64,000 bases of DNA from Micromonospora sp. HM5-17. GTDB taxonomy: Bacteria; Actinomycetota; Actinomycetes; Mycobacteriales; Micromonosporaceae. Where the stretch lies: assembly GCF_003762835.1 (NCBI RefSeq), contig NZ_RJWA01000003.1, positions 310,001-374,000 of the forward strand, given 5' to 3'. Position 1 is the stretch's first letter. Every line of letters starts with the position of its first letter. Under the pieces are notes generated by a model that worked only from the letters and a program-made list of their open reading frames with translations, searched no databases and had not been told where the DNA came from. Position numbers and translations under genes: made by a program. This document shows, in pieces, positions 30,690 through 42,086 of the stretch.

Positions 30690-31844
30690 CTAGCGCGGCG
30701 CTCTCGGGGCGGCTCTGTTCCGGCGAAGCAGCGCGACGACCAGGAAGGTGACGAGGAGCCCGAGCACGACGAGCGCGCCGCAGCCGACGAGCGCGACCGT
30801 GGTGACGACGCTGCCGGCGTTCTCCGGTTCGGGAGCGGCGTCGTTGCCGTCCTCGGCCTCGGTCGGGGACGGCGTCGCGGACGCACTCGGCACCGCATCC
30901 CCTGCCAGCGGCGGTACGTCCGCGGTGAGCGCGGCGACGATGTCGAGTACGCCGTAGCCGTACTCCTCGTCCCGCCCGGGCGCGCCCTTGTCGTCCGCGG
31001 TCGCCGTCAACCGGTGGACGACCTCCTTGGCTGGCATGTCCGGGTATCTGCTCCGGATCAGTGCCACCGCCCCGGAGACGATCGCAGCCGCACTCGATGT
31101 ACCTGAGGCCTTGCGGTATCTGCCATTAGCGCTGGTGCTCTGAATGTCGACACCCGGGGCGCTGATGAGGATCTCCTTGCCGGTCTTGGAAGTTGGGGAG
31201 ATCTCGCCATCCTGCTTGATCGAGCCAACGGCGACGACACCATCCATCCTCGCGGGATAAGGCACCGCGAAGTCAGCAGAGTTTCCTCCTGCGGCAACGA
31301 CGACGATATCAGCGTTGATTGCTGCTTCCACTGCTTCCCGCAATTCAGTGGTTGGCGGGACGGCGGCAGAAATATTGATTACGTCTGCGTTGTGGGATAT
31401 AGCCCACCGTATACCTGCGGCGGTGTCCTCGGATTCGCCAACGTTTTTGTTTCTTCCGTCCTGGATTGGAAGAATCTTCGCCTTGGGGGCGATGCCGAGG
31501 ACGCCGGATCCGCCTCGGCCGTGCGCGGCGATGAGGCCGGCCATGCCGGTGCCGTGTCCACTGGGGTCACCGTCGCGCCGGCCGTCGCCCGAGCCGCCGG
31601 CATAGGTGACGGTCCCAGGGAGCAGGTTGTTCCGTAGGTCGGGATGAGGGTCGACGCCGGTGTCGACGACGGCGACCGTGACCCCCGCGCCCTGGCTGAT
31701 CTTGTGCGCCTCGGCGATCCTCAGGTAGCGCAGGTGCCACTGATTGTCCCGCACCTGGTCGGCGCGGGCCGGAGCAGCGGGCAGAACGGCGACGGCCGTG
31801 GCACAGAGAAGTGCCACGGCCGCGCGGGTCGTGCGAGAGATCAC
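30690..31844 (-). CDS. mycP: Mycosin-like subtilase (S8), type VII secretion-associated
   Basis: A 384-residue membrane-anchored subtilisin-like protease. It has a signal peptide (residues 1-28, AAPARA), the catalytic triad Asp61 (VVDTGVD), His97 (GHGTGMAG) and Ser250 (GTSSA), and an oxyanion Asn in AAGGNSA. A Pro/Glu linker and one C-terminal transmembrane helix (about 341-365) end in a basic tail. This is the MycP layout of ESX/type VII systems, where the protease faces outside and stabilises the secretion complex. It shares an ATGA overlap with the upstream gene. The middle of the gene (about 31130-31480) is clearly richer in A/T and rare codons than its surroundings. No ESX core genes accompany it. 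Confidence 0.9.
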   Translation of the reverse strand: MISRTTRAAVALLCATAVAVLPAAPARADQVRDNQWHLRYLRIAEAHKISQGAGVTVAVVDTGVDPHPDLRNNLLPGTVTYAGGSGDGRRDGDPSGHGTGMAGLIAAHGRGGSGVLGIAPKAKILPIQDGRNKNVGESEDTAAGIRWAISHNADVINISAAVPPTTELREAVEAAINADIVVVAAGGNSADFAVPYPARMDGVVAVGSIKQDGEISPTSKTGKEILISAPGVDIQSTSANGRYRKASGTSSAAAIVSGAVALIRSRYPDMPAKEVVHRLTATADDKGAPGRDEEYGYGVLDIVAALTADVPPLAGDAVPSASATPSPTEAEDGNDAAPEPENAGSVVTTVALVGCGALVVLGLLVTFLVVALLRRNRAAPRAPR

Positions 31845-33247
31845 CGGTTGTAGCCAATCGCGGGACCTGGGTCAATGCGGCCCGTCTCGCGACTGGGCAG
31901 CATGACCGGCGCCACGCCCTCGTCGGTCTCCCACGGGTTGTCGGGATCCCAGTGCTGGCCGTTGTGCTCCTCATCTCGGGTCCTGCCGGCGCCGCGGGCG
32001 CCCGGCACCATCCCGAACGGCTGACCAGAACGGCCCAGCCCAACGCCGGGACGCTGGCCGGCTCCGGGACGCTGTCCGGCGCCGCCGAGCGGAGCCGAAG
32101 GTGGGACTGTTCGCGGTGAACCGGCGCCGCCGCCACCACCGCCACCGATGACGCCACCCACCGGGTTGATCCGGCGGGCTGCTCCGACGCCCGGGGCTGG
32201 CTGCCCCAGCCCGGTTCCGGGTGACCCGCCGATCAGGCCTCCCGGCGGCATCGCCCGGGGCGGTAGCCCGGCGGTTGGGGTCAGACCGGGCTTCGGCACT
32301 CCGCCAGGCGGGGTGTGCGAGGGAAGCGGGTAGCCCGAGCCGGGGGGCAACCCCACCACGGGCGGCGGGACCGGGGGCAGGCCCGGAGTTGGGGTAGGGG
32401 CTGGAGACGGCGTGATCACTGGTGGCGGTGCAGGCTGCACGGGCGGCGCCAGTGGCCCGGTGCCACCCAGGATCGGCCCGCCCGGTGCGGGTGCGACGGG
32501 GGGGACGACCTGGGGCGGCGGGGCCGACGGCGGCCGGGGTGTGGAACCGCCGCCACCACCCGGCGATACCGGCACGACCGCTGGCAGGACCGGCGGGCTG
32601 CCGCTGAACCCACCGCCTCCCTCGCCACTAGCCCCACCGGGATCGTCTCGGCCAGTCCTTGCCGGCTTGTACTCCGGAGGCTTCCTGATCTGCATCTGAG
32701 CCAACCCGAGCTCGTTGCTCAGGTTGTACATGATGGTCCGCGCCTGGTTGTTCAGTTTGTCCAGGTCAGCCTGGGTCGCGGGTGGATCGCCCAGGGTCGT
32801 GCCGGGCAGCATCGAATCCTTCTCGGCGGCGACCCGCTCGTCGTACTCCTTCTTGGCGGCCTTCTTGGCGACGTAGTCGTCGTAGATCTTCTTGAGCTTG
32901 GGCTTGGCGTCGCTGATCGCCAGGGCGACGTTCTTGACGGTCTGGTAGTTGGCGACCGCCGCGTCGTAGATGCCCTGCACGGTCAGGATGAGGTGGTCAA
33001 GCCGTTCGACGTAGGCGCGGGCGGCCTCGTTCTTCTCCGGCGGCCACGCCTCGGTGAGGCGGTCGCGGTAAATCTTGAGGCGCGACAGGTGCGTCGAGCT
33101 CAGCTCGTATGTCTTCTGCCACTGGGTGACCCGCTGCCAGTGGCTGTTGGTGTCCTGGTTGGCCAGCTTGGCCCACATCTGCTCGACGTCCTGGCTGTAC
33201 CAGTTGGTCGAGCCGGCGTAGCCGCCGCCTCCACCTGCGATATGCAT
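31841..33247 (-). CDS. Type VII secretion-associated protein with helical head and Pro/Gly-rich tail
   Basis: A 468-residue protein. Residues 1-200 are helical (TNWYSQDVEQMWAKLANQ..., then long Lys/Asp/Glu helices), like the heads of large WXG100/PPE-type ESX substrates or chaperoned partners. Residues 205-435 are low-complexity Pro/Gly/Val. The C-terminus is a short non-repetitive tail (DPDNPWETDEGVAPVML...GYNR). I do not recognise a named family. The coupled mycosin (4-bp overlap) and the upstream 159-residue gene (1-bp overlap) indicate one operon. A secreted or surface role is inference. Confidence 0.75.
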   Translation of the reverse strand: MHIAGGGGGYAGSTNWYSQDVEQMWAKLANQDTNSHWQRVTQWQKTYELSSTHLSRLKIYRDRLTEAWPPEKNEAARAYVERLDHLILTVQGIYDAAVANYQTVKNVALAISDAKPKLKKIYDDYVAKKAAKKEYDERVAAEKDSMLPGTTLGDPPATQADLDKLNNQARTIMYNLSNELGLAQMQIRKPPEYKPARTGRDDPGGASGEGGGGFSGSPPVLPAVVPVSPGGGGGSTPRPPSAPPPQVVPPVAPAPGGPILGGTGPLAPPVQPAPPPVITPSPAPTPTPGLPPVPPPVVGLPPGSGYPLPSHTPPGGVPKPGLTPTAGLPPRAMPPGGLIGGSPGTGLGQPAPGVGAARRINPVGGVIGGGGGGGAGSPRTVPPSAPLGGAGQRPGAGQRPGVGLGRSGQPFGMVPGARGAGRTRDEEHNGQHWDPDNPWETDEGVAPVMLPSRETGRIDPGPAIGYNR

Positions 33248-33726
33248 TAGGACACCCCCGAATTGTTCGTGGTACCGGTCGGCGTCGTCGGCTCACTGCC
33301 ACTCTTCGGCGGGCCCTGGGTCTCGCCGTTGGTCGGCGGCGCCACGCCGGTCTGGTCGAGCGCCCGCTCGACCTCCGTGACCCGTGCGTAGGAGAATGCG
33401 TCGGAGTTGGCGTAGTTCTGGCTGACGATCTTGGCAGCGTTGGCGATCCGGCCGGTACCGTCGCCGACGCCCCAGATGCTGTCGGACGCCACCTGCTGAA
33501 CATCCCGGTGAGCCTGCATGAAGGAGTACAGCTCGGTGAAGTCGCTGGCCACCTCAGGGCGGTCAGCGACCATTTCATCCTGTAGCTCCCGCATGTGGGG
33601 GACGTAGTTCTTCTTCACCTCGGCCTCGAGGCTGGCAGCGAACTCCTCCATCCGCTGTATGTCGGCTTCGATGGTGCCGCCGTAGTCCCGCAGCCACGCA
33701 GGGCCCCGGTCTTCCTCAGGTATCAC
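33247..33726 (-). CDS. Small helical ESX-associated protein
   Basis: A 159-residue protein and the first gene of the mycosin operon. The N-terminal 115 residues are predicted helices (IEADIQRMEEFAASLEAEVKKNYVPHMRELQDEM), followed by a Thr/Pro/Ser/Gly tail. There is no signal peptide. The size and helix-plus-tail layout resemble type VII substrates, but no WXG motif is present. The start is GTG 33726 behind GGGGAG, and the stop overlaps the next start as TAATG. The function is unknown. Confidence 0.75.
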   Translation of the reverse strand: MIPEEDRGPAWLRDYGGTIEADIQRMEEFAASLEAEVKKNYVPHMRELQDEMVADRPEVASDFTELYSFMQAHRDVQQVASDSIWGVGDGTGRIANAAKIVSQNYANSDAFSYARVTEVERALDQTGVAPPTNGETQGPPKSGSEPTTPTGTTNNSGVS

Positions 33727-33762
33727 GTGTTCTCCCCAGGTGCTACGTACTGCCCCACTCGT

Positions 33763-33768
33763 AGGTTA
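33763..33768 (-). promoter_or_regulatory. Putative -10 element of the mycosin operon
   Basis: The minus strand reads TAACCT about 37 bp before the first start codon, which has a ribosome site. Confidence 0.35.
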
Positions 33769-33849
33769 ATGGGTGCGGCACAACCCGGGCAGCCCTGCTC
33801 GGCGACCCGGAGATCACGACACGGTAGCGGCCGGCGGCATCCGAAACCG

Positions 33850-34077
33850 TCAGCGCGGAAGGCCGGAGACCCGCCACGCGTCGCGTCCGGCCTGGGTCGG
33901 CAGGCCGGACGGAGACACCGTACCGGGCCGGCTGAGGCGCACCCAGGTCGACACGGCGGCGGGTGCGGCCGAGGCGTTCCGTTTGGGGCACCGCAGGATC
34001 ACCCCCACCAACGCGGCCACCTCCTCGGCGGTCGGGCTTCCCCGGACCACTCGGAGCAGCGGTTTCTCATCGGCCAT
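33850..34077 (-). CDS. accE: Acyl-CoA carboxylase epsilon subunit
   Basis: A 75-residue protein with the AccE/PccE pattern: LLRVVRGSPTAEEVAALVGVIL at the N-terminus and a Trp-containing C-terminal end DAWRVSGLP. Epsilon subunits stimulate actinobacterial acyl-CoA carboxylases by bridging alpha and beta subunits. It normally follows accD directly; here accD lies 6.4 kb away, with kinase, protease and ESX-like genes between. The ATG at 34077 has its own leaderless TACGCT promoter, so it can be expressed independently. A longer frame upstream crosses that promoter and is rejected. Confidence 0.85.
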   Translation of the reverse strand: MADEKPLLRVVRGSPTAEEVAALVGVILRCPKRNASAAPAAVSTWVRLSRPGTVSPSGLPTQAGRDAWRVSGLPR

Positions 34078-34084
34078 GGCCCCG

Positions 34085-34090
34085 AGCGTA
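34085..34090 (-). promoter_or_regulatory. Leaderless -10 element for accE
   Basis: The minus strand reads TACGCT, 7 nt before ATG 34077. Confidence 0.5.
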
Positions 34091-34154
34091 CGTCTGTCGG
34101 TTGGCGGACGTCTCAGATGGGCGTGCCGACCGTGTGGCCCGTAACGCCGTTGGG

Positions 34155-34160
34155 TACCGT
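34155..34160 (+). promoter_or_regulatory. Leaderless -10 element for second kinase
   Basis: TACCGT ends 6 nt before GTG 34167. Confidence 0.5.
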
Positions 34161-34166
34161 CCATAG

Positions 34167-36305
34167 GTGTCCAGTGCGCCCCCCCAACTGATTGGTAACC
34201 GTTATCGGCTTGTCGAGCCGCTCGGCCAGGGCGGCATGGGTCGTGTCTGGAAGGCACGCGACGAGGTGCTGCACCGGGACGTCGCGATCAAGGAATTGGT
34301 CGCGCCGCCGGGGCTGACCGAGGACGAGCGTCGCGAGATGCGGGAGCGCTCGCTGCGCGAGGCGCGGGCGATCGCCCGGCTCAACCACGCGAACGTGGTC
34401 CGGGTCTTTGACGTGCTGCGCACCGACGGTGACCCGTGGATCGTGATGGAGTACATCCCGTCCCGGTCGCTCCAGGACGTCCTCGCCACCGATGGGCCGG
34501 TGTCGCCGACCCGGGCCGCCGAGATCGGCCTGGGTGTGCTGGGGGCGCTGAAGGCCGCGCACCGGGCCGGGGTGATGCACCGGGACGTGAAGCCCGGTAA
34601 CGTCCTGCTCGGCGAGGACGGGCGGGTGGTGCTCACCGACTTCGGCCTGGCGACGGTGCCGGGCGACCCGAACGTCACCCGTACCGGCCTGGTGCTGGGC
34701 TCGCCCGCGTACATCGCTCCGGAGCGGGCCCGGGATGGCACGTTCGGGCCGGAGGCCGACCTCTGGTCGTTGGGCGCGACACTCTTCGCGGCGGTGGAGG
34801 GGCAGTCGCCGTTCGCCCGGCCGTCCGCGATCGCGACGCTGGCCGCGCTGGCCACCGAGCCAACACCCGTCCCGCGCCACGCCGGCCCGCTCAAGACGGT
34901 CCTGGCTGGACTGCTGCAGAAGGACCCGGCGCTCCGGATCAACGCCGAGACCGCCGAGCGGCTGCTGCGCCGCGCCGCGGGCCGGCGTGGTCGCGGCGGG
35001 CTGTCGCTGCTCGACAGCGTACGGCGTTCGAACTCACTCGGTTCGCGCGAGCCGGGGGAACCGCGTGCCCGGATGGCGCCGCTGCCGGCCCCGCGGGCGG
35101 GTCAGAAGCAGCCGGCCGCGGCCGCGCCGGACAAGCCGGCCCCCTCGGCCGGTGCACCCGCCGCACCCCCGCCCCCGCCGTCGGCCGCACCCGAGACCGC
35201 TCCGCTCGTCCCGGCTGCCGCCGAGACCCGGAAGCTCTCGCCGACGGACGCCGAGGCGTCGACGGCAAAGCCACCGGCCGAGGACAAGGCACCGAACCGG
35301 GAAGAGTCACCGGCCGAGGCGCCGTCAGCCGCCGACGAGAGGGCGCCGGCCGAGGAGAGGCCGGCGGCGGAGCCGACGGTGGTAGTACCGGCGAGCGGTT
35401 CGGCGGAGGCTTCCTCGAAGCAGGAGGTAGCCGCACCGGCTCCGGCCCCGGAACCGGCCCGGACGAAGCCGGAACCGGGACCGATCGAGGTGGTCGCGCC
35501 GTCCGCGCCGTCGACCGGCCGCACCCCGGGTCCGGCGGGTACACCCGCGACGTACGAGGGCGGGCGTGCCGGCCGTGGTGCGCTGGCCGGGTTGGCCAGC
35601 GACCGCAGGCTGTGGCTGGTCGGCGGTCTGGCCGTCCTGGTGCTGCTCCTGATCGCGGTGATCGTGCCGCTGGCCAACGGCGACTCGGGCGACGGGGGCG
35701 ATGGCGGGACCGGCCCGGTCGCGAAAGCGACCAGCCCGGCCGCGCCCACGCCATCCGCGCAGGCGACCGGTGCGCCGCCCGCGACACCGCCGAGCACCCC
35801 GTCGGCGCAGCCGTCCGCGACCCCGACCGGCCAGCCGGACGGGCAGTTGCCGCCGGGCTGGCGCCTGCACCGGGACGAGACCGGCTTCTCCGTGCCGGTG
35901 CCGGAGGGCTGGGAGATGACCCGGACGCGGTGGGGTAAGCGGCCGGACGAGGTGCGGGTCTACTTCCGTGATCCGAACAGCCCCAAGGCTCTCCTCATCG
36001 ACCAGAACAACAGTCCGAAGTCGGATCCGGTCGCCGACTGGGAGAACCAGGAGAAGGCCCGCAAGGGTCGATACCGCAACTACCAGCGGGTGACGATTAA
36101 GCGCGTCGACTACTTCGACATCGCGGCCGACTGGGAATGGATCTACACCGATGACGGCGTCCGGATGCACGTCCGTAACCGGGGCTTCGTCACCGCCAAG
36201 GACAAGGCATACGCGATCCGCTGGGACGCCCCCGCCGACGAGTGGGAGGAGAGTCTGGCCGACTTCCAGATCATCGCCAACGGCTTCCGGCCCGTACGGG
36301 ACTGA
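34167..36305 (+). CDS. Receptor-type serine/threonine protein kinase
   Basis: A 712-residue Hanks kinase. The glycine loop is LGQGGMGRV (19-27), with Lys42, HRDVKPGN (138-145) and DFG (158-160). A long Ala/Pro/Glu linker spans about 290-480, one membrane helix is at about 483-502, and an extracytoplasmic domain occupies about 560-710 (GFSVPVPEGW...VYFRDPNSPKALL...ANGFRPVRD). That domain shares layout and short motifs with the kinase at 10.5 kb (SVP-GW, VYxDPN), so the two are probably paralogues sensing related signals. Its position between two ESX-like operons suggests, but does not show, a functional link. The start is GTG 34167 with the TACCGT hexamer. Confidence 0.94.
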   Translation: MSSAPPQLIGNRYRLVEPLGQGGMGRVWKARDEVLHRDVAIKELVAPPGLTEDERREMRERSLREARAIARLNHANVVRVFDVLRTDGDPWIVMEYIPSRSLQDVLATDGPVSPTRAAEIGLGVLGALKAAHRAGVMHRDVKPGNVLLGEDGRVVLTDFGLATVPGDPNVTRTGLVLGSPAYIAPERARDGTFGPEADLWSLGATLFAAVEGQSPFARPSAIATLAALATEPTPVPRHAGPLKTVLAGLLQKDPALRINAETAERLLRRAAGRRGRGGLSLLDSVRRSNSLGSREPGEPRARMAPLPAPRAGQKQPAAAAPDKPAPSAGAPAAPPPPPSAAPETAPLVPAAAETRKLSPTDAEASTAKPPAEDKAPNREESPAEAPSAADERAPAEERPAAEPTVVVPASGSAEASSKQEVAAPAPAPEPARTKPEPGPIEVVAPSAPSTGRTPGPAGTPATYEGGRAGRGALAGLASDRRLWLVGGLAVLVLLLIAVIVPLANGDSGDGGDGGTGPVAKATSPAAPTPSAQATGAPPATPPSTPSAQPSATPTGQPDGQLPPGWRLHRDETGFSVPVPEGWEMTRTRWGKRPDEVRVYFRDPNSPKALLIDQNNSPKSDPVADWENQEKARKGRYRNYQRVTIKRVDYFDIAADWEWIYTDDGVRMHVRNRGFVTAKDKAYAIRWDAPADEWEESLADFQIIANGFRPVRD

Positions 36306-36439
36306 CCACAGTGCGGGTCGGTGCCGTTCGACGACGACCGGGCTCGGTCGCGTCCCGGGACGGGGACCGTCGACCGATAGCCGGATGCGCGGCGGCTCGC
36401 CAGCGTGCCGGGGGAGGCGAGCCGCCGCGCATCGTGAGC

Positions 36440-36445
36440 TAGGCT
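36440..36445 (+). promoter_or_regulatory. Leaderless -10 element for M50 protease gene
   Basis: TAGGCT ends 7 nt before ATG 36453. The 147-bp gap before it also holds a GC-rich dyad (GCGCGGCGGCTCGCC... with GGCGAGCCGCCGCGC, about 36386-36430) that may end the kinase transcript. Confidence 0.5.
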
Positions 36446-36452
36446 CGGTCGA

Positions 36453-37193
36453 ATGTCGCTGGACGGCGTGGCCGAGCTGTGGGACCGACTCGTCGGGACG
36501 CAACCCGATCCGCCGCCGTGGCTGGTTCTGCTCACCGGGCTCCTCGCGCTGACCGTGGTGGTCACCCGGTTGCCGTGGCGGATCGGGCGCAACGCCATCA
36601 CCATCGCCCACGAGGGCGGGCACGCGTTGGCGGCCGTCCTCACCGGACGGCGGTTGCAGGGCATCCGGCTGCACTCGGACACCTCCGGGCTGACGCTGTC
36701 GGCCGGCCGGCCCACCGGGTCGGGGATGGTGTTTACGCTGCTCGCCGGCTATCTGGCGCCGTCGCTGATCGGGCTGGGCGGCGCCTGGCTGCTGGGCGGC
36801 AACCGGATAACCCTGTTGCTCTGGATCGCGGTCGCGCTGCTGCTCGCCATGCTGGTGATGATCCGGAACGTCTACGGCGTCCTCTCGATCGTGGTGACCA
36901 CGGCGGTCGTACTCGGGGTTTCGTGGCGGGCGTCGCCGCAGGTGCAGGCGGCGTTCGCGTACACCGGGGTGTGGTTCCTGCTGCTCGGCGGCGTACGGCC
37001 GGTGGGTGAGCTGCAAGCCCTGCGCCGCCGAGGGCAGCTTCCGCAGTCGGATGCCGACCAGCTCGCCTGGATCACCCGGGTCCCCGCGCTGGTCTGGGTT
37101 GGTCTGTTCGGCGTGGTGAACATCCTCGCCCTCGTGGCCGGCGCGGCGCTGCTCACCGGACCGGCCCTCGACCGCCTCGACCTGCCGGGCTGA
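36453..37193 (+). CDS. M50 family membrane metallopeptidase
   Basis: A 246-residue membrane protein with the zinc protease motif HEGGH (residues about 52-56) in a hydrophobic setting, and five to six further helices. This is the compact M50B-like type without a PDZ domain, related to the putative intramembrane site-2 proteases of actinomycetes. The substrate is unknown. It could process a regulator or one of the neighbouring membrane proteins. Confidence 0.88.
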   Translation: MSLDGVAELWDRLVGTQPDPPPWLVLLTGLLALTVVVTRLPWRIGRNAITIAHEGGHALAAVLTGRRLQGIRLHSDTSGLTLSAGRPTGSGMVFTLLAGYLAPSLIGLGGAWLLGGNRITLLLWIAVALLLAMLVMIRNVYGVLSIVVTTAVVLGVSWRASPQVQAAFAYTGVWFLLLGGVRPVGELQALRRRGQLPQSDADQLAWITRVPALVWVGLFGVVNILALVAGAALLTGPALDRLDLPG

Positions 37194-37237
37194 CCGGCGC
37201 GCCACGACCGGCGCTGATCGAGGCGGCCCCCTCCGGC

Positions 37238-37495
37238 CTATCGCCGGCGCAGGAAGGCGTGCACCAGTTTGCTGTTGCCGAACTCGGCCACGTTCAGCAG
37301 CTCCCAGCCGAACTGGGCGAGCGCGTCCGCGGCCATCAGCGCCTGGGTCACCCGCTCCGGCCCCACGCCGCGATGCGACAGGATCGCCAGGTAGCGGTAC
37401 GGATAGCCGCGAAGGTCGGCGGTGCCGGTCAGCACCGCCTCCGCGGTGACCATGCGGCGCTGGGCGATCGTCTGCGGCGTCTCACGCATCGACAT
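37238..37495 (-). CDS. Small uncharacterised protein (85 aa)
   Basis: An 85-residue soluble protein of no family I can name (AEAVLTGTADLRGYPYRYLAILSHRGVGPERVTQALMAADALAQFGWELLNVAEFGN...). The ending FGWELLNVAEFGNSKLVHAFLRR resembles DUF4177-type beta proteins, but only loosely. ATG 37495 is supported by a leaderless TACGGT on its strand. It is divergent from the lipoprotein gene. Confidence 0.65.
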   Translation of the reverse strand: MSMRETPQTIAQRRMVTAEAVLTGTADLRGYPYRYLAILSHRGVGPERVTQALMAADALAQFGWELLNVAEFGNSKLVHAFLRRR

Positions 37496-37501
37496 GCGTT
37501 C

Positions 37502-37563
37502 ACCGTAGCCAGCCGGTGGTGGCAGGTGAGCGGGCTGCGAGGGCTGGTGTCGCGCGGTAGTTT
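37502..37563. promoter_or_regulatory. Divergent leaderless promoters
   Basis: The minus strand TACGGT (37502-37507) lies 6 nt before ATG 37495. The plus strand TAGTTT (37558-37563) lies 6 nt before ATG 37570. Neither start has a ribosome site. Confidence 0.5.
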
Positions 37564-37569
37564 GTCGAC

Positions 37570-38256
37570 ATGGGTCCATCGTCATCCGGGCTCCGGTACG
37601 CCCGCCGGGGCGGACGACGTCTCGCCTGGTCGGCCAGCCTCGGTGTGCTCGTGATCGTCCTGTCCGCCACCGGGTGCACCGGGGGTTCGGCGGACCCGAC
37701 GGTGGCCGAACCGACCACGACCTCGACCTCGACCGGCGCGTCGCCGGAGCCGACCGCGGGCGGTCCCGGCGGGGCGTCCGGCGTGACCTACGACGCGGTG
37801 GGGGTCGACTTCTGCGACCGTACCGATCTCGAGTCGCTCGCCGACCTGTCGCTCAAGCTCGTCAACCGGACCCCCAAGCAGCCCGCCTCGGCACCCGGCG
37901 CGGCCTGCCTCTTCGAGTTGCGTACCGGGAGCGGGCACGAGGCGAGCCTGCTGGTCGAGGCGTCGACGTTGGGTTCGGCGGACGAGGCGGGACGGCTCTA
38001 TCGCGCTACCCGAGAGACCACGGAGATGAGCCCGGACGGCCCGGTGTCCGGCCTCGGTGAGGAGGCGGAGGGCTTTTCCGAACAGTCCGATACCGACGTC
38101 AAGCGGGCCGAATACATGATCCACGCGCGGAGTTCAAACCTGGTGCTCAAGGTGTGGCTGGCGGTGAGCGGCACGACGTACACCCCGAAGGACGTACTGG
38201 CGACCAAGGTCAAGAAGATCGCGCAGCTGAGCCTCGCCGAGGTGCCCGGCTCCTGA
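37570..38256 (+). CDS. DUF3558-like lipoprotein
   Basis: A 228-residue predicted lipoprotein. A basic N-terminus and hydrophobic helix lead to a lipobox ending ATGC at about residue 36, then a Thr/Pro/Ser-rich linker and a globular domain with one Cys pair (VDFCDRTDLESL... and GAACLFEL). The pattern is like the DUF3558 lipoproteins that are frequent in actinomycetes. The role is unknown. It converges on the second ESX-like operon. The short gap holds a duplicated CCTGACCCGCCT element (about 38252 and 38280). Confidence 0.7.
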   Translation: MGPSSSGLRYARRGGRRLAWSASLGVLVIVLSATGCTGGSADPTVAEPTTTSTSTGASPEPTAGGPGGASGVTYDAVGVDFCDRTDLESLADLSLKLVNRTPKQPASAPGAACLFELRTGSGHEASLLVEASTLGSADEAGRLYRATRETTEMSPDGPVSGLGEEAEGFSEQSDTDVKRAEYMIHARSSNLVLKVWLAVSGTTYTPKDVLATKVKKIAQLSLAEVPGS

Positions 38257-38353
38257 CCCGCCTGCCCCGGGCCGGCGTGCCTGACCCGCCTACGCCGGGG
38301 AGGCGGCGACCGTGTCGGGGACCAGGGAGTCGATGGCAGTAACCTCCCGGGGC

Positions 38354-39109
38354 TCAGCCGCGTACCGCCTCGGGCCACCGTCCGCCGGGCAGCTTCGAGT
38401 GGTCGCCCACCTGGCTGGCCAGGTCCCGGACGTTGCCCAGCGCTTCGACGAACCGCTTACCAATCTCGAGCAGCGTGTTGAGCCCCGATTCCACCAGGCT
38501 GCCGATGGCGTTGCCCAGGGTCTCCACCACCAACGGGATGGTGATGACGCCGCCGGCCTCGGCGACCGCCTCCACGATCTTGGCGGCGACGTTGGTCACG
38601 ATTTTGGCCAACTGGACGGCGTAGTCGACCTTCGACTTGGCGATCTTGAAGAGCCACTGGCTGATGAACTCGGCCTTGGCGGCGGCCTCGTCCACGGCCG
38701 CCTTCTGCTGGGCGGACTTGCGGGCGTAGGCCGACGCGGCGTCGCCGCTCCACCTGACCAGGTCCTCGTCCCGCGGCTCGGTGGTCACGAACGAGAGCCC
38801 GGAGATCGGGGTCTTCACCTCATGAACCCAGCGAAAGCTGATTTTGATGAGGGAGATGACCGGGGTCTCGTGTTCGATCGCGTACTTGACCCTTTCCAGC
38901 AATTTGTTGATGGCTTCCCGTATCTCGTGGAGGCGTCGGATGATCCACGACATGGCCGTGGTGCCGAGCAGGAAGGCGACGCTGCGAATATTCTCGACCA
39001 GCGCCGTGAACCCGTCGGTCGCCCGCGCCATGCCTTCTCGCATCTGCTGGAACGCCGTGGTGTACGGTTCGAGGTATTCCGCCTCGCTGCCGATCGGCGG
39101 CGGCGTCAT
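38354..39109 (-). CDS. WXG-type ESX-associated protein (251 aa)
   Basis: A 251-residue all-helical protein, the last gene of a three-gene operon. A central VRWSGDAASAYARK segment at about residue 117 carries the W-x-G motif of WXG100-like proteins between two long helices. A hydrophobic stretch (VAEAGGVITIPLVVETLGNAIGSLV) follows at about 185-215. This resembles larger type VII substrates with a WXG core. AAGGGA precedes ATG 39109. No toxin domain is visible at the C-terminus. Confidence 0.75.
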   Translation of the reverse strand: MTPPPIGSEAEYLEPYTTAFQQMREGMARATDGFTALVENIRSVAFLLGTTAMSWIIRRLHEIREAINKLLERVKYAIEHETPVISLIKISFRWVHEVKTPISGLSFVTTEPRDEDLVRWSGDAASAYARKSAQQKAAVDEAAAKAEFISQWLFKIAKSKVDYAVQLAKIVTNVAAKIVEAVAEAGGVITIPLVVETLGNAIGSLVESGLNTLLEIGKRFVEALGNVRDLASQVGDHSKLPGGRWPEAVRG

Positions 39110-39126
39110 GACACCATCCCTTCGCG

Positions 39127-39444
39127 TCACGCGCTGTAGATCTGGTTGAGGTTGAGGGAGACGATCGCGTCAGCCCGGTCGTAGGCGTCGGCGATGCGGT
39201 CGAGCGCCGTGCCGAGCTGATCAAACTCGGTCACCGCACCGCCGAGGATGTTCTCCATGAAGGACTGGTAGCCGTTGTATGCCGCCGAATGTCCGTGAGC
39301 GTTGGCATCACCGATGAAGAACGCCGAGACGCTGAGATCGAGGCTGGCGACCGCCGCCTTGATCGGGACCATCCTGTCGGAGAGCTGTTTCCACTTCTTG
39401 CCCTCGTTGTAGAGGGCCCGGGTGATGACCCTCACCTCGTCCAT
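39127..39444 (-). CDS. EspC/WXG100-like small secretion substrate (105 aa)
   Basis: A 105-residue protein of two predicted helices (MDEVRVITRALYNEGKKWKQLSDRM... and TEFDQLGTALDRIADAYDRADAIVSLNLNQIYSA). Length and helical hairpin match EspC/WXG100-type ESX substrates, which are exported as dimers. The WXG turn itself is not evident (HGHSAAYNG occupies the turn). GAGGAAG precedes ATG 39444. It is 17 bp upstream of the 251-residue protein, so the two may form a secreted pair. Confidence 0.75.
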   Translation of the reverse strand: MDEVRVITRALYNEGKKWKQLSDRMVPIKAAVASLDLSVSAFFIGDANAHGHSAAYNGYQSFMENILGGAVTEFDQLGTALDRIADAYDRADAIVSLNLNQIYSA

Positions 39445-39481
39445 GGTGGGTCTTCCTCTCGTCGGCCGGAATCGGATCCGA

Positions 39482-40165
39482 TCAGTTCTCGACAACCTTG
39501 GCCACGGTGCGGAACAGGCCGAGCGCCTCCATGCGCAACTGTTCCGGATTGGCGCTCCGGATGTACTGGATGTCGCCGGTGATGTCGGTGATCCCGCCTC
39601 CCCGCACCCGGGCGCGCAAATACCCCTGCGGGCTGGTCACCGTCTGCTCCCGGAGGTGCACGTCGGCGCTGATGTGGTGGAGCCGCCGGAGCTGCGTGTC
39701 GATGTCTTCGAGCAGTCGCCAGGTCTGATTCAGCCACTCCTGGTCGTCGACCGGTGGCTCGGGCGCAGCGTCCGTCTGATCCGACCGTACGTCCGTCGGG
39801 TCGCGCGGCGCGACGGGCTGGCCGCCGACCTGTTCCTGGGCGACGAGGGCGGCCAGGGCGTTCGCGTTGATCAGCTTCCGTACCGCGTCGGTGTACGCCT
39901 CGTGGAGCGCCGCCGGAAAGCGCTCCGAGCCCAGCCGGTCCCGCCAGTGCCGGCTGATGTCGACGCTCTCGATGTGGCCCTCGGCGTCGATGGTGACCCA
40001 GATCGAGTCCGATCCGTCGGCACCCTCGTGCCGTGGCGGCGGCACGTAGTGGTCGCCGACGTTCGCCAGCTCCCGTCGCAGCTCGGCTTGCAGCTTGTCG
40101 GAGTCGCCGAGGACGTCCAGGTCGGGCAGTCTCAGATCGTCGTCGTGACCGTACCGGTCTGGCAC
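39482..40165 (-). CDS. YbaB/EbfC-like ESX-associated protein
   Basis: A 227-residue protein, first in the operon. The N-terminal 105 residues (DSDKLQAELRRELANV...IWVTIDAEGHIESVDISRHWRDRLGSERFPAALHEAYTDAVRKLI) have the helix-strand-helix layout of YbaB-like proteins, which often accompany WXG100 genes in actinomycetes. An acidic linker and a second domain (LLEDIDTQLRRLHHI...GGGITDITGDIQYIRSANPEQLRMEALGLFR) follow. It is possibly a chaperone-like adaptor for the downstream substrates (inference). The start is GTG 40165 after a G-rich ribosome site. Confidence 0.7.
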   Translation of the reverse strand: MPDRYGHDDDLRLPDLDVLGDSDKLQAELRRELANVGDHYVPPPRHEGADGSDSIWVTIDAEGHIESVDISRHWRDRLGSERFPAALHEAYTDAVRKLINANALAALVAQEQVGGQPVAPRDPTDVRSDQTDAAPEPPVDDQEWLNQTWRLLEDIDTQLRRLHHISADVHLREQTVTSPQGYLRARVRGGGITDITGDIQYIRSANPEQLRMEALGLFRTVAKVVEN

Positions 40166-40490: not shown

Positions 40491-42086
40491 TCAGAGCGGG
40501 ATGTTGCCGTGCTTCTTCGGCGGCAGGGTCTCCCGCTTGGTCCGCAGGAACCGCAGCGCCCGGACGATCTGGCCCCGGGTCTCCGACGGTCGGATCACCG
40601 CGTCGACGTACCCGCGCTCGGCGGCGACGTACGGGTTGGCGAGGGTGTCCTCGTACTCCTGGATCTTCTCGGCCCGCAGCGCGGCCGGGTCCTCGGCGGC
40701 GGCCAGTTCACTCCGGTAGAGGATGTTGACCGCCCCCTGGGCCCCCATCACCGCGATCTGGGCGGTCGGCCACGCGAAGTTGAGGTCGGCACCCAGGTGC
40801 TTGGAGCCCATCACGTCGTACGCCCCGCCGTACGCCTTGCGGGTGATCACCGTCACCTTCGGCACGGTCGCCTCGGCGTACGCGTAGATGAGCTTGGCAC
40901 CGCGCCGGATGATCCCGTCCCACTCCTGGCCGGTGCCGGGCAGGAAGCCGGGGACGTCCACGAAGGTCAGGATCGGGATGTTGAAGGCGTCGCAGGTGCG
41001 GACGAACCGGGCCGCCTTCTCGGAGGCGGCGATGTCCAGGCAGCCGGCGAAGTGCATCGGCTGGTTGGCCACCACCCCGACGGGGCGTCCCTCGACCCGG
41101 CCGAACCCGACCACGATGTTCTGCGCGTACAGCGGCTGGATCTCCAGGAACTCGCCGTCGTCGAGGACGTGCTCCACCACCCGGTGGATGTCGTACGGCT
41201 GGTTCGCGGAGTCCGGGATCAGCGTGTCCAGCTCCCGGTCGGCGTCGGTGACCTCCGGGTCGGCGACCACGTCGGCGAAGGCCGGCGGTTCGTCGAGGTT
41301 GTTCGACGGCAGGTACGACAGCAGCGCCCGGACGTACTCGATCGCGTCCTCCTCGTCCGTGGCGAGGTAGTGCGCGTTGCCGCTGCGGGTGTTGTGGGTC
41401 CGCGCGCCGCCCAACTCCTCCATCCCGACGTCCTCACCGGTCACGGTCTTGATCACATCGGGACCGGTGATGAACATGTGCGAGGTCTTGTCGACCATCA
41501 CTGTGAAGTCGGTCACCGCGGGGGAGTAGACCGCGCCACCCGCGCACGGTCCCATCACCAGCGATATCTGCGGGATGACCCCGGAGGCGCGGACGTTGCG
41601 GAAGAAGATCTCACCGTACAGGCCGAGACTGACCACGCCCTCCTGGATGCGCGCGCCGCCGGAGTCGTTGATCCCGATCACCGGACAGCCGATCTTCATC
41701 GCCAGGTCCATCACCTTGACGATCTTCTCGCCGAAGACCTCGCCGAGTGAGCCGCCGAAGACGGTGAAGTCCTGGGCAAAGACGCAGACCTTCCGGCCGT
41801 CGACCGTGCCGTAGCCGGTCACCACGCCGTCGCCGTACGGGCGGGTCTTCTCCAGCCCGAAGTTGGTCGAGCGGTGTCGGGCCAACTCGTCGAGCTCGAC
41901 GAAGGAACCCGGGTCGAGGAGCAGCGCGATCCGCTCCCGGGCGGTCTTCTTGCCTCGGGCGTGCTGCTTCTCCACCGCCCGGGCGGATCCGGCGTGCACC
42001 GCCTCGTTCACCCGGCGGTCCAGATCGGCGATCCGTCCGGCGGTGGTGTGCGGGTCGACGCCGGTGCTGGTCCGCTGCGCAGTCAC
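40491..42086 (-). CDS. accD: Acyl-CoA (propionyl/acetyl-CoA) carboxylase beta subunit
   Basis: A 531-residue carboxyltransferase subunit that moves CO2 from biotin to propionyl- or acetyl-CoA. Family motifs are present: [31 protein letters not shown] (oxyanion glycines), [19 protein letters not shown] and the C-terminal half [31 protein letters not shown]. The length and pattern fit AccD5/PccB. The start GTG 42086 is set by a TACGAT hexamer 7 nt upstream. It is divergent from birA, which biotinylates the partner AccA. Confidence 0.95.

What the first reader, a model, noticed from the sequence alone, without database searches (positions are those of the whole stretch)
30690..40165. ESX-associated gene island with an orphan mycosin, split around accE, kinase and M50 protease
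Seen: a mycosin-type protease and two helical partners in one coupled operon (30.7-33.7 kb), and a YbaB-like protein, an EspC-like small protein and a WSG-motif protein in another (38.4-40.2 kb). Between them lie accE, a receptor kinase, an M50 protease and a DUF3558-like lipoprotein. None of the ESX core genes (EccB, EccC, EccD, EccE) is present. Known: mycosins work with an ESX membrane complex. Inference: this is an accessory substrate/protease module that uses a core encoded elsewhere, or a reduced, divergent secretion-linked signalling system in which kinase and proteases regulate surface proteins.
Basis: partly seen in the sequence, partly recalled or inferred. Interest (0 to 1): 0.7.

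Follow-up and report, generated by a model that had tools for sequence, protein, structure and literature searches.

The report
Detached type VII secretion substrate module
A soil bacterium keeps a secretion-system protease and the pair of proteins it probably exports inside a fatty-acid gene cluster, far from the genes of the export machine itself, and many relatives in its family do the same.

Summary
The genes described are present at the stated coordinates. They are two unrelated modules rather than one split island.

Module 1 (30.7-33.7 kb) is an overlapping operon: a PE/EspC-like protein (159 aa), a PPE-fold protein (468 aa) and a mycosin. It lies between accE and maf in 59 of 65 named loci. 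The 159-aa protein keeps YxxxD in 62 of 62 sequences. The 468-aa N-terminal domain models as a PPE domain: the top five PDB matches are PPE chains, with modest E-values. The mycosin groups with ESX mycosins, not subtilases. In three genomes of another family the trio lies inside an ESX locus. Module 1 is best read as a detached piece of an ESX operon. The window genome encodes its ESX core on other contigs.

Module 2 (37.2-40.2 kb) is a wandering cassette: YbaB-like, EspC-like and WxG proteins, often with a lipoprotein and an 85-aa protein.

Kinase and M50 protease are neighbours; no role in secretion is shown. Secretion, pairing and cleavage are inferred. New variant of a known kind.

The parts
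30690..31844 (-). mycosin (MycP-type subtilase): N-terminal hydrophobic stretch, triad D61/H97/S250 with N188, C-terminal hydrophobic helix
   Evidence: TIGR03921 289.5 bits, cut-off 278.75; triad and hydropathy; tree
31841..33247 (-). 468-aa PPE-fold protein: helical domain (1-199), Pro/Gly-rich linker, conserved C-terminal W...GVxPV motif; no signal peptide by crude hydropathy
   Evidence: AlphaFold2 pLDDT 91.0, Foldseek top five all PPE, motif 56 of 65, hydropathy
33247..33726 (-). 159-aa PE/EspC-like partner: helix hairpin followed by Y105xxxD109
   Evidence: Y and D in 62 of 62, the only invariant columns among 26 divergent members, low-confidence model
33850..34077 (-). accE, acyl-CoA carboxylase epsilon subunit (host locus)
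   Evidence: PF13822 E 2.2e-11
34167..36305 (+). Ser/Thr receptor kinase (neighbour, no shown role)
   Evidence: PF00069 E 9.7e-46
36453..37193 (+). M50B membrane protease (neighbour, no shown role)
   Evidence: PF13398 E 7.8e-66
37238..37495 (-). 85-aa protein of unknown family, often found with the cassette
   Evidence: in 7 of 14 loci with a 251-aa relative: window, L050, L053, L054/L092, L055, a diverged copy in L052, L211
37570..38256 (+). lipoprotein, weakly DUF3558-like, often found with the cassette
   Evidence: DUF3558 E 0.021; in 5 of 14 loci with a 251-aa relative: window, L050, L052, L053, L054/L092
38354..39109 (-). 251-aa WxG protein, weakly EspA/EspE-like
   Evidence: W120 in 13 of 13, G122 nearly invariant; EspA_EspE 5 of 13 (best 0.014), WXG100 4 of 13 (best 0.016)
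39127..39444 (-). 105-aa EspC-like protein with YxxxD
   Evidence: EspC in 9 of 13 members, best 3e-4, none for the window protein itself; YxxxD/E in 11 of 13
39482..40165 (-). 227-aa YbaB-like protein, putative cassette chaperone
   Evidence: 7 of 10 members match YbaB, best 1.3e-11; window protein 0.039

Best explanation
Module 1 is a detached piece of an ESX (type VII) operon. The 159-aa and 468-aa proteins form a PE/PPE-like heterodimer. The YxxxD after the hairpin of the 159-aa protein is the export signal. An ESX membrane complex encoded elsewhere, most likely the one whose EccC and EccD lie on contig C51, exports the pair. The co-encoded mycosin, reaching the membrane by its own signal peptide, sits on or near that complex. 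There it stabilises the channel and perhaps trims the long C-terminal region of the 468-aa protein, as MycP1 does with EspB. Module 2 is a separately acquired ESX substrate cassette: an EspC-like/WxG pair with a YbaB-like chaperone, comparable to EspC-EspA-EspD or EspF-EspE-EspH. Shown by sequence: operon, synteny, motif conservation, fold resemblance, mycosin ancestry, ESX-embedded homologues, core genes elsewhere. Inferred: dimer formation, export, which ESX serves it, proteolysis, chaperone role.
For: 61 of 65 named loci carry all three genes, 59 of them between accE and maf; in 59 of the 61 they are adjacent in this order with gaps of at most 70 bases. Y and D invariant 62/62. PPE fold. 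Three genomes of another family carry the trio in an ESX locus; Pfam checks of one (L225) give EccC-type FtsK, EccD and two WXG100 proteins, and the other two show the same gene order. Profile comparison links the families at E 3.5e-13 and 3.6e-7; the ESX-embedded 468-like proteins match PPE at 5.9e-5, 3.1e-5 and 2.6e-4. In the home family, G021 has 468-like, 159-like, MycP, EccB and two WXG100-like genes in one run. 41 trio mycosins form one clade (98/93) inside an ESX mycosin clade (100/100), six subtilases outside. Triad intact in those 41. C51-type EccC in 27 of 28 trio-positive and 1 of 9 trio-negative family genomes. MycP is described as a loosely bound periplasmic cap (PMC11217815, passages). 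YbaB-like EspH/EspD/EspL are proposed Esp chaperones (PMC6107294, passages).
Against: No ESX core gene lies in the window. Window P468 and P159 pass no Pfam cut-off. No Foldseek hit reaches E 1e-3, and other helical bundles follow closely. The P159 model is poor and matches nothing useful. Any YxxxD/E occurs in 59% of shuffles of P159, so only its conservation and place count. Gene order is not universal: in G015 (L105) it is 468-mycosin-159. The co-occurrence is not corrected for phylogeny, and trio-negative means only no close P468: G018 has three divergent trio-like sets without C51-type EccC, and G010 and G020 have weak P468-like matches. Co-occurrence with EccD alone is uninformative: 36 of 37 family genomes have it.
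Confidence: 0.75

Rival explanations
1. The extra mycosin is mainly structural: it caps or stabilises an alternative ESX complex, and the 159/468 pair are fixed envelope parts of that complex rather than released substrates.
For: MycP of M. marinum is needed for complex stability apart from proteolysis (PMC5082899, abstract and passages). The trio is held at one locus in most named loci. Each split ESX piece looked at carries its own mycosin.
Against: The catalytic triad is intact in the 41 trio mycosins aligned. The 468-aa protein has a partner with an export-type motif and a long Pro/Gly-rich linker.
Confidence: 0.18
2. The trio works without any ESX core: a membrane-anchored protease with two cytoplasmic helical partners, e.g. 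stress regulation of the acyl-CoA carboxylase locus.
For: No core gene nearby; stable place inside the acc cluster; neither helical protein has a signal peptide by crude hydropathy.
Against: Homologous trios sit in ESX loci; each of the 28 trio-positive genomes has at least one ESX core gene (EccD in 27, EccB in the 28th); mycosin ancestry.
Confidence: 0.05
3. The mycosin is an ordinary secreted subtilase and the partners are unrelated.
For: Plain subtilisins lead the single-sequence PDB list.
Against: Curated mycosin score passed; tree separates it from six subtilases of the same genome (100/99); trio conserved.
Confidence: 0.01
4. The trio is a decaying remnant of a lost ESX.
For: It is separated from the core.
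Against: Triad, YxxxD and C-terminal motif are kept in most or all relatives examined.
Confidence: 0.01

Closest known systems
EspB-MycP1 of mycobacterial ESX-1
   Same: A PE/PPE-fold substrate with a long C-terminal region (recalled) that a mycosin cleaves (PMC5082899, passages).
   Different: EspB fuses PE and PPE parts in one chain and is encoded within ESX-1 (recalled); here the two parts are separate genes, away from any core gene. Cleavage is untested.
PE/PPE substrate pairs
   Same: Small partner with a helix hairpin and YxxxD plus a large partner with a PPE-like domain.
   Different: No N-terminal PE or PPE motif; the letters W-P-P-E lie at the helix turn (residues 68-71). No Pfam match above cut-off. 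The section read of PMC4791881 lists clusters with pe/ppe in mycolic-acid producers.
EspACD and EspEFH with YbaB-like EspD/EspH
   Same: YbaB-like protein + EspC-like + WxG partner; EspACD too lies away from ESX-1 (recalled).
   Different: Family matches are weak; I recall no counterpart of the companion lipoprotein and 85-aa protein.
T7SS clusters of Micromonospora lupini Lupac 08
   Same: That paper lists three separate T7SS clusters, one eccC-eccD-mycP, one esxA-esxB-mycP (PMC4182475, passages), resembling the split core seen here.
   Different: The passages seen do not mention a mycosin beside accE or a PE/PPE-like pair.

Membership tests
Mycosin (TIGR03921, MycP) | score above the curated model cut-off | tested here: met
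   289.5 bits against 278.75
Mycosin (TIGR03921, MycP) | catalytic Asp, His, Ser | tested here: met
   window D61/H97/S250; 41 of 41 trio mycosins aligned
Mycosin (TIGR03921, MycP) | signal peptide and C-terminal membrane helix | tested here: met
   window hydropathy peaks at both ends; by the same crude threshold a C-terminal helix in 46 of 63 mycosins of the named loci, not in 17
Mycosin (TIGR03921, MycP) | groups with ESX mycosins, not with subtilases | tested here: met
   tree of 83 chosen rows
Mycosin (TIGR03921, MycP) | processes a substrate or stabilises an ESX complex | not testable with these tools
   needs experiment
PPE family (PF00823) | Pfam match of the 468-aa protein | tested here: not met
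   none for the window protein; in 32 members WXG100_2 7 (best 1.9e-4), EspA_EspE 5 (best 2.6e-4), PPE 1 (0.011); ESX-embedded homologues match PPE at 21.5-24.5 bits, cut-off 26
PPE family (PF00823) | N-terminal Pro-Pro-Glu motif | tested here: not met
   sequence and alignment
PPE family (PF00823) | PPE fold | tested here: met
   top five of the PDB list are PPE chains, TM 0.53-0.70 by query, but E 0.005-0.03 only
PE / WXG100 / EspC small partner (P159) | helix hairpin followed by YxxxD/E | tested here: met
   62 of 62; hairpin model of low confidence
PE / WXG100 / EspC small partner (P159) | Pfam match to PE, WXG100 or EspC | tested here: not met
   none in 26 members; one ESX-embedded homologue of three matches WXG100 at 0.0044, under cut-off
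ESX (type VII) locus | EccB-E beside the substrate genes | tested here: not met
   none in the window; present elsewhere in the genome
EspACD-like module | YbaB-like + EspC-like + EspA-like genes together | tested here: inconclusive
   best E 1.3e-11, 3e-4 and 0.014 for the three families

The most novel reading that the evidence does not exclude
Micromonosporaceae run one ESX system from pieces scattered over the chromosome: EccC-EccD, EccB-EccE-two WXG100, and one or two PE/PPE-like pairs, each piece with its own mycosin that acts as a dedicated adapter or processing protease for that piece. G001, a single-contig genome, shows this cleanly: one EccB, one EccC and one EccD match, four mycosins, the four pieces more than a megabase apart.
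Probability: 0.35. Interest if true: 0.72.

Novelty: new variant of a known kind. Interest (0 to 1): 0.55.

Why it matters
Mycosins are essential to ESX secretion, yet EspB was the only substrate known for any of them when PMC5082899 was written (passages). A mycosin bound in one operon to one PE/PPE-like pair, away from the core and in soil bacteria, would give a clean system to ask what mycosins do. It would also place PPE-fold substrates outside the mycolic-acid bacteria and show that an ESX operon can be taken apart.

Tried and rejected
Rejected: ordinary subtilase; one split island; decaying remnant. Co-occurrence of the trio with EccD was tried and is uninformative, since 36 of 37 family genomes have EccD. 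YxxxD presence in one protein was tried as evidence and dropped: 11824 of 20000 shuffles of P159 and 9634 of 20000 of P105 contain one. PDB sequence searches with the P468, P159, P105 and P251 profiles gave no useful relative; P105 touched EspB only at E 0.18 and worse. Plasmid records hold no match to the 468-aa or 251-aa protein at E 1e-3. In the C-terminal motif count 9 of 65 miss the strict pattern, several by one residue.

Rows dropped or chosen: one duplicate locus (L054, same genome as L092) and matches under 38 bits; P468 pieces of 240 aa or less, and for the C-terminus also L100, L108 and L121, cut by contig ends; A1 holds 32 sequences. The structure alignments hold the window plus 51 of the 65 (A7) and 48 of the 61 (A8) named loci. 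The mycosin tree holds a hand-chosen set: the window, 15 accE-linked ones of the relatives, 10 of the named loci, 15 of other trios, and 6 of the genome's 18 S8 matches as outgroup (L006, the window mycosin itself, left out; L008 gave no row); nearness to EccD was labelled by hand. In that tree the accE-linked trio mycosins and the others are intermixed. The EccC tree used only the 1-3 best EccC per genome, e.g. 2 of 7 for G013 and 2 of 10 for G012. The trio-negative label rests on one P468 query; closer looks found divergent trio-like sets in G018 (3 loci, by the P159 profile and by look; the P468 profile did not reach E 0.01 there) and weak P468-like matches in G010 and G020. Start codons and gene calls outside the window come from my own caller and heuristics.
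Full report
What is there. On the minus strand the order is accD (40491-42086), YbaB-like 227 aa, EspC-like 105 aa, WxG 251 aa, then (with plus-strand genes between) an 85-aa protein, accE, a 159-aa protein, a 468-aa protein, a mycosin and maf. Plus-strand genes between are a lipoprotein, an M50B protease and a receptor kinase. accE at 33850-34077 passes its Pfam cut-off. The three genes ending in the mycosin overlap by 1 and 4 bases. In the named loci the 159-to-468 junction overlaps in 60 of the 61 loci measured, most often by 4 bases, with starts chosen by heuristics. No EccB-E homologue was found in the window.

The genome. It is a draft of 6.17 Mb in 51 contigs. It has five mycosins at E 1e-60 or better, four over the curated cut-off. 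Three lie beside ESX genes: C51 with EccC and EccD; C1 with EccB, two WXG100 genes and an EccE-like gene (E 0.0017, under cut-off); and C12:669.8 kb with EccC, EccD, EccB and at least one WXG100 gene. EccC of C51 was named by its 58% identity to the C12 protein. The other two, the window's and one at C12:798.6 kb, both belong to a 159-468-mycosin trio.

Synteny of module 1. Relatives of the 468-aa protein were found in 28 of 61 genomes, 28 of 37 in the family and 0 of 24 outside it. All 65 hold the 468-aa gene, 64 a mycosin, 61 the 159-aa gene, 60 accE, 60 the kinase, 59 maf, 49 the M50 gene; some loci end at contig ends. In 59 of the 61 with all three the genes are adjacent in the window's order; G015 (L105) has 468-mycosin-159 instead. 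The trio lies beside accE also where kinase and M50 were not found (L102, L107, L207). Some relatives carry only trios elsewhere, and in the home genus a second trio lies away from the acc cluster (L045, L109-L113). A class-wide profile search of 296 genomes found it in 6, three of them in one other family, f43.

Link to ESX. In all three f43 genomes the trio lies on one strand behind two small WXG-type genes, with large EccC-type and EccD-type genes near. Pfam checks were made on L225: EccC-type FtsK, EccD and both WXG100 proteins pass their cut-offs; L226 and L227 show the same gene order and sizes. The 468-like proteins of all three match PPE at E 5.9e-5, 3.1e-5 and 2.6e-4, just under the cut-off, and WXG100. 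Profile comparison with the window families gives E 3.5e-13 for the large and 3.6e-7 for the small protein. In G021, inside the family, 468-like, 159-like, MycP, EccB and two WXG100-like genes follow each other. So the trio is part of an ESX locus in some genomes and detached in most of the Micromonosporaceae loci examined.

The small partner. Y105 and D109 are the only invariant columns among 26 divergent members and are kept in 62 of 62 of the second set; the two sets share the window and some genomes. The motif follows the second helix of a hairpin in a model of low confidence (pLDDT 71.3, pTM 0.37) that has no useful fold match. Chance alone gives some YxxxD/E in 59% of shuffles, so the weight lies on conservation and place. 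YxxxD is the general T7SS motif (PMC5311947, abstract start in a search listing).

The large partner. Its first 199 residues model at pLDDT 91.0, pTM 0.80, from an alignment of 52 sequences. The five best PDB chains are PPE41 (four) and PPE15; no match reaches E 1e-3 and BAR-domain bundles follow. L64, W68, P70 and A75 are invariant in 52 of 52. After a Pro/Gly-rich stretch, the end carries W...GVxP[VILM] in 56 of 65 (21 of 20000 shuffles of the window's last 60 residues). Neither partner has a hydrophobic stretch that would serve as signal peptide (crude hydropathy).

The mycosin. In a tree of 83 chosen rows the 41 trio mycosins form one clade (98/93) within a 56-row clade (100/100) that also holds the f43 ESX mycosins and the C51-type ESX mycosins; six subtilases of the same genome stand apart (100/99). 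The triad is intact in the 41.

Which ESX. In an EccC tree of 67 rows (short search, SH-aLRT only) the C51-type forms a clade of 28 rows, support 100, with one row from each of 27 of the 28 trio-positive genomes (missing: G011, 69% complete) and one from trio-negative G035. Thus 27 of 28 against 1 of 9; Fisher 2e-6, or 1e-5 with the home genus counted once. This is not corrected for shared ancestry, and G018 has three divergent trio-like sets without C51-type EccC, so the link is to P468-type trios only. G001, a single-contig genome, has one EccB (4366719), one EccC and one EccD (2385597) match, and four mycosins: one in each of the two core pieces and two in trios.

Module 2. Relatives of the 251-aa protein were found in 15 of 61 genomes. 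In the acc neighbourhood the cassette was seen only in the window genome, in G003 (beside M50 at a contig end) and, between mycosin and maf, in Paractinoplanes tereljensis; the other loci lie elsewhere. Of 14 loci with a 251-aa relative, 5 have the lipoprotein and 7 the 85-aa gene. EspC is the commonest Pfam match of the small protein (9 of 13), EspA_EspE and WXG100 lead for the large one (5 and 4 of 13, weak), YbaB for the third (7 of 10). Beside the complete ESX of this genome a YbaB-like gene (E 5.4e-14) also precedes a small and a large gene. EspH, EspD and EspL are YbaB-like and proposed chaperones of ESX-1 substrates (PMC6107294, passages).

What is known. MycP1 cleaves EspB, and mycosins also stabilise the ESX complex (PMC5082899, abstract and passages); MycP forms a cap on the outer side of the complex (PMC11217815, passages). 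ESX-4 clusters of non-mycolate actinomycetes are known to be rearranged, and the section read lists pe/ppe clusters in mycolic-acid producers (PMC4791881, section 5 and passages). The M. lupini paper lists three T7SS clusters including eccC-eccD-mycP (PMC4182475, passages), so the split core is partly in print. I saw no paper on a detached PE/PPE-like-mycosin trio in the listings of searches, which cover open-licence papers only.

Verdict. New variant of a known kind. Shown: genes, synteny, ancestry, fold resemblance, ESX-linked homologues. Inferred: pairing, export, choice of ESX, cleavage.

Noticed in passing
L046 (G000:C51:91001-111000) and L044 (G000:C1:747000-766000): The genome's ESX core is split: EccC+EccD+MycP in one place, EccE-like+EccB+two WXG100+MycP in another. 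The same split holds in G001, G005 and G014; in G009 EccB is elsewhere.
   Followed up: partly
L059:9823-11745 (G001): The YbaB-EspC-WxG cassette is followed by a 640-aa mycosin-like protein without GHGT and GTSxA motifs; by look it has two mycosin-like halves, a tandem pseudo-mycosin.
   Followed up: partly
L301 and L305 (G013, G032): A C51-like mycosin stands beside a set that looks YbaB-like, EspC-like and 363 aa (named by look); among the ESX proteins tried only MycP matched in the 18 kb fetched.
   Followed up: no
L302, L303, L304 (G018): Three divergent trio-like sets whose large protein has a plain WxG or WSG turn and ends in RQTWLxED or a close variant.
   Followed up: partly
window 37238-37495: 85-aa protein with a conserved YPYR...GWEL.N pattern and no Pfam family above cut-off, often with the cassette.
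   Followed up: partly
L211:12557-15227 (Paractinoplanes tereljensis): A second arrival of the cassette beside the trio, between mycosin and maf.
   Followed up: no
L047:15549-19998 (G000:C12): YbaB-like, small helical and large (at least 1238 aa) genes beside the complete ESX; the large one looks like a big T7SS substrate.
   Followed up: no
window 34167-36305: The kinase ectodomain has a weak match (16 bits, cut-off 47.6) to the T7SS-associated Rv3446c model.
   Followed up: no
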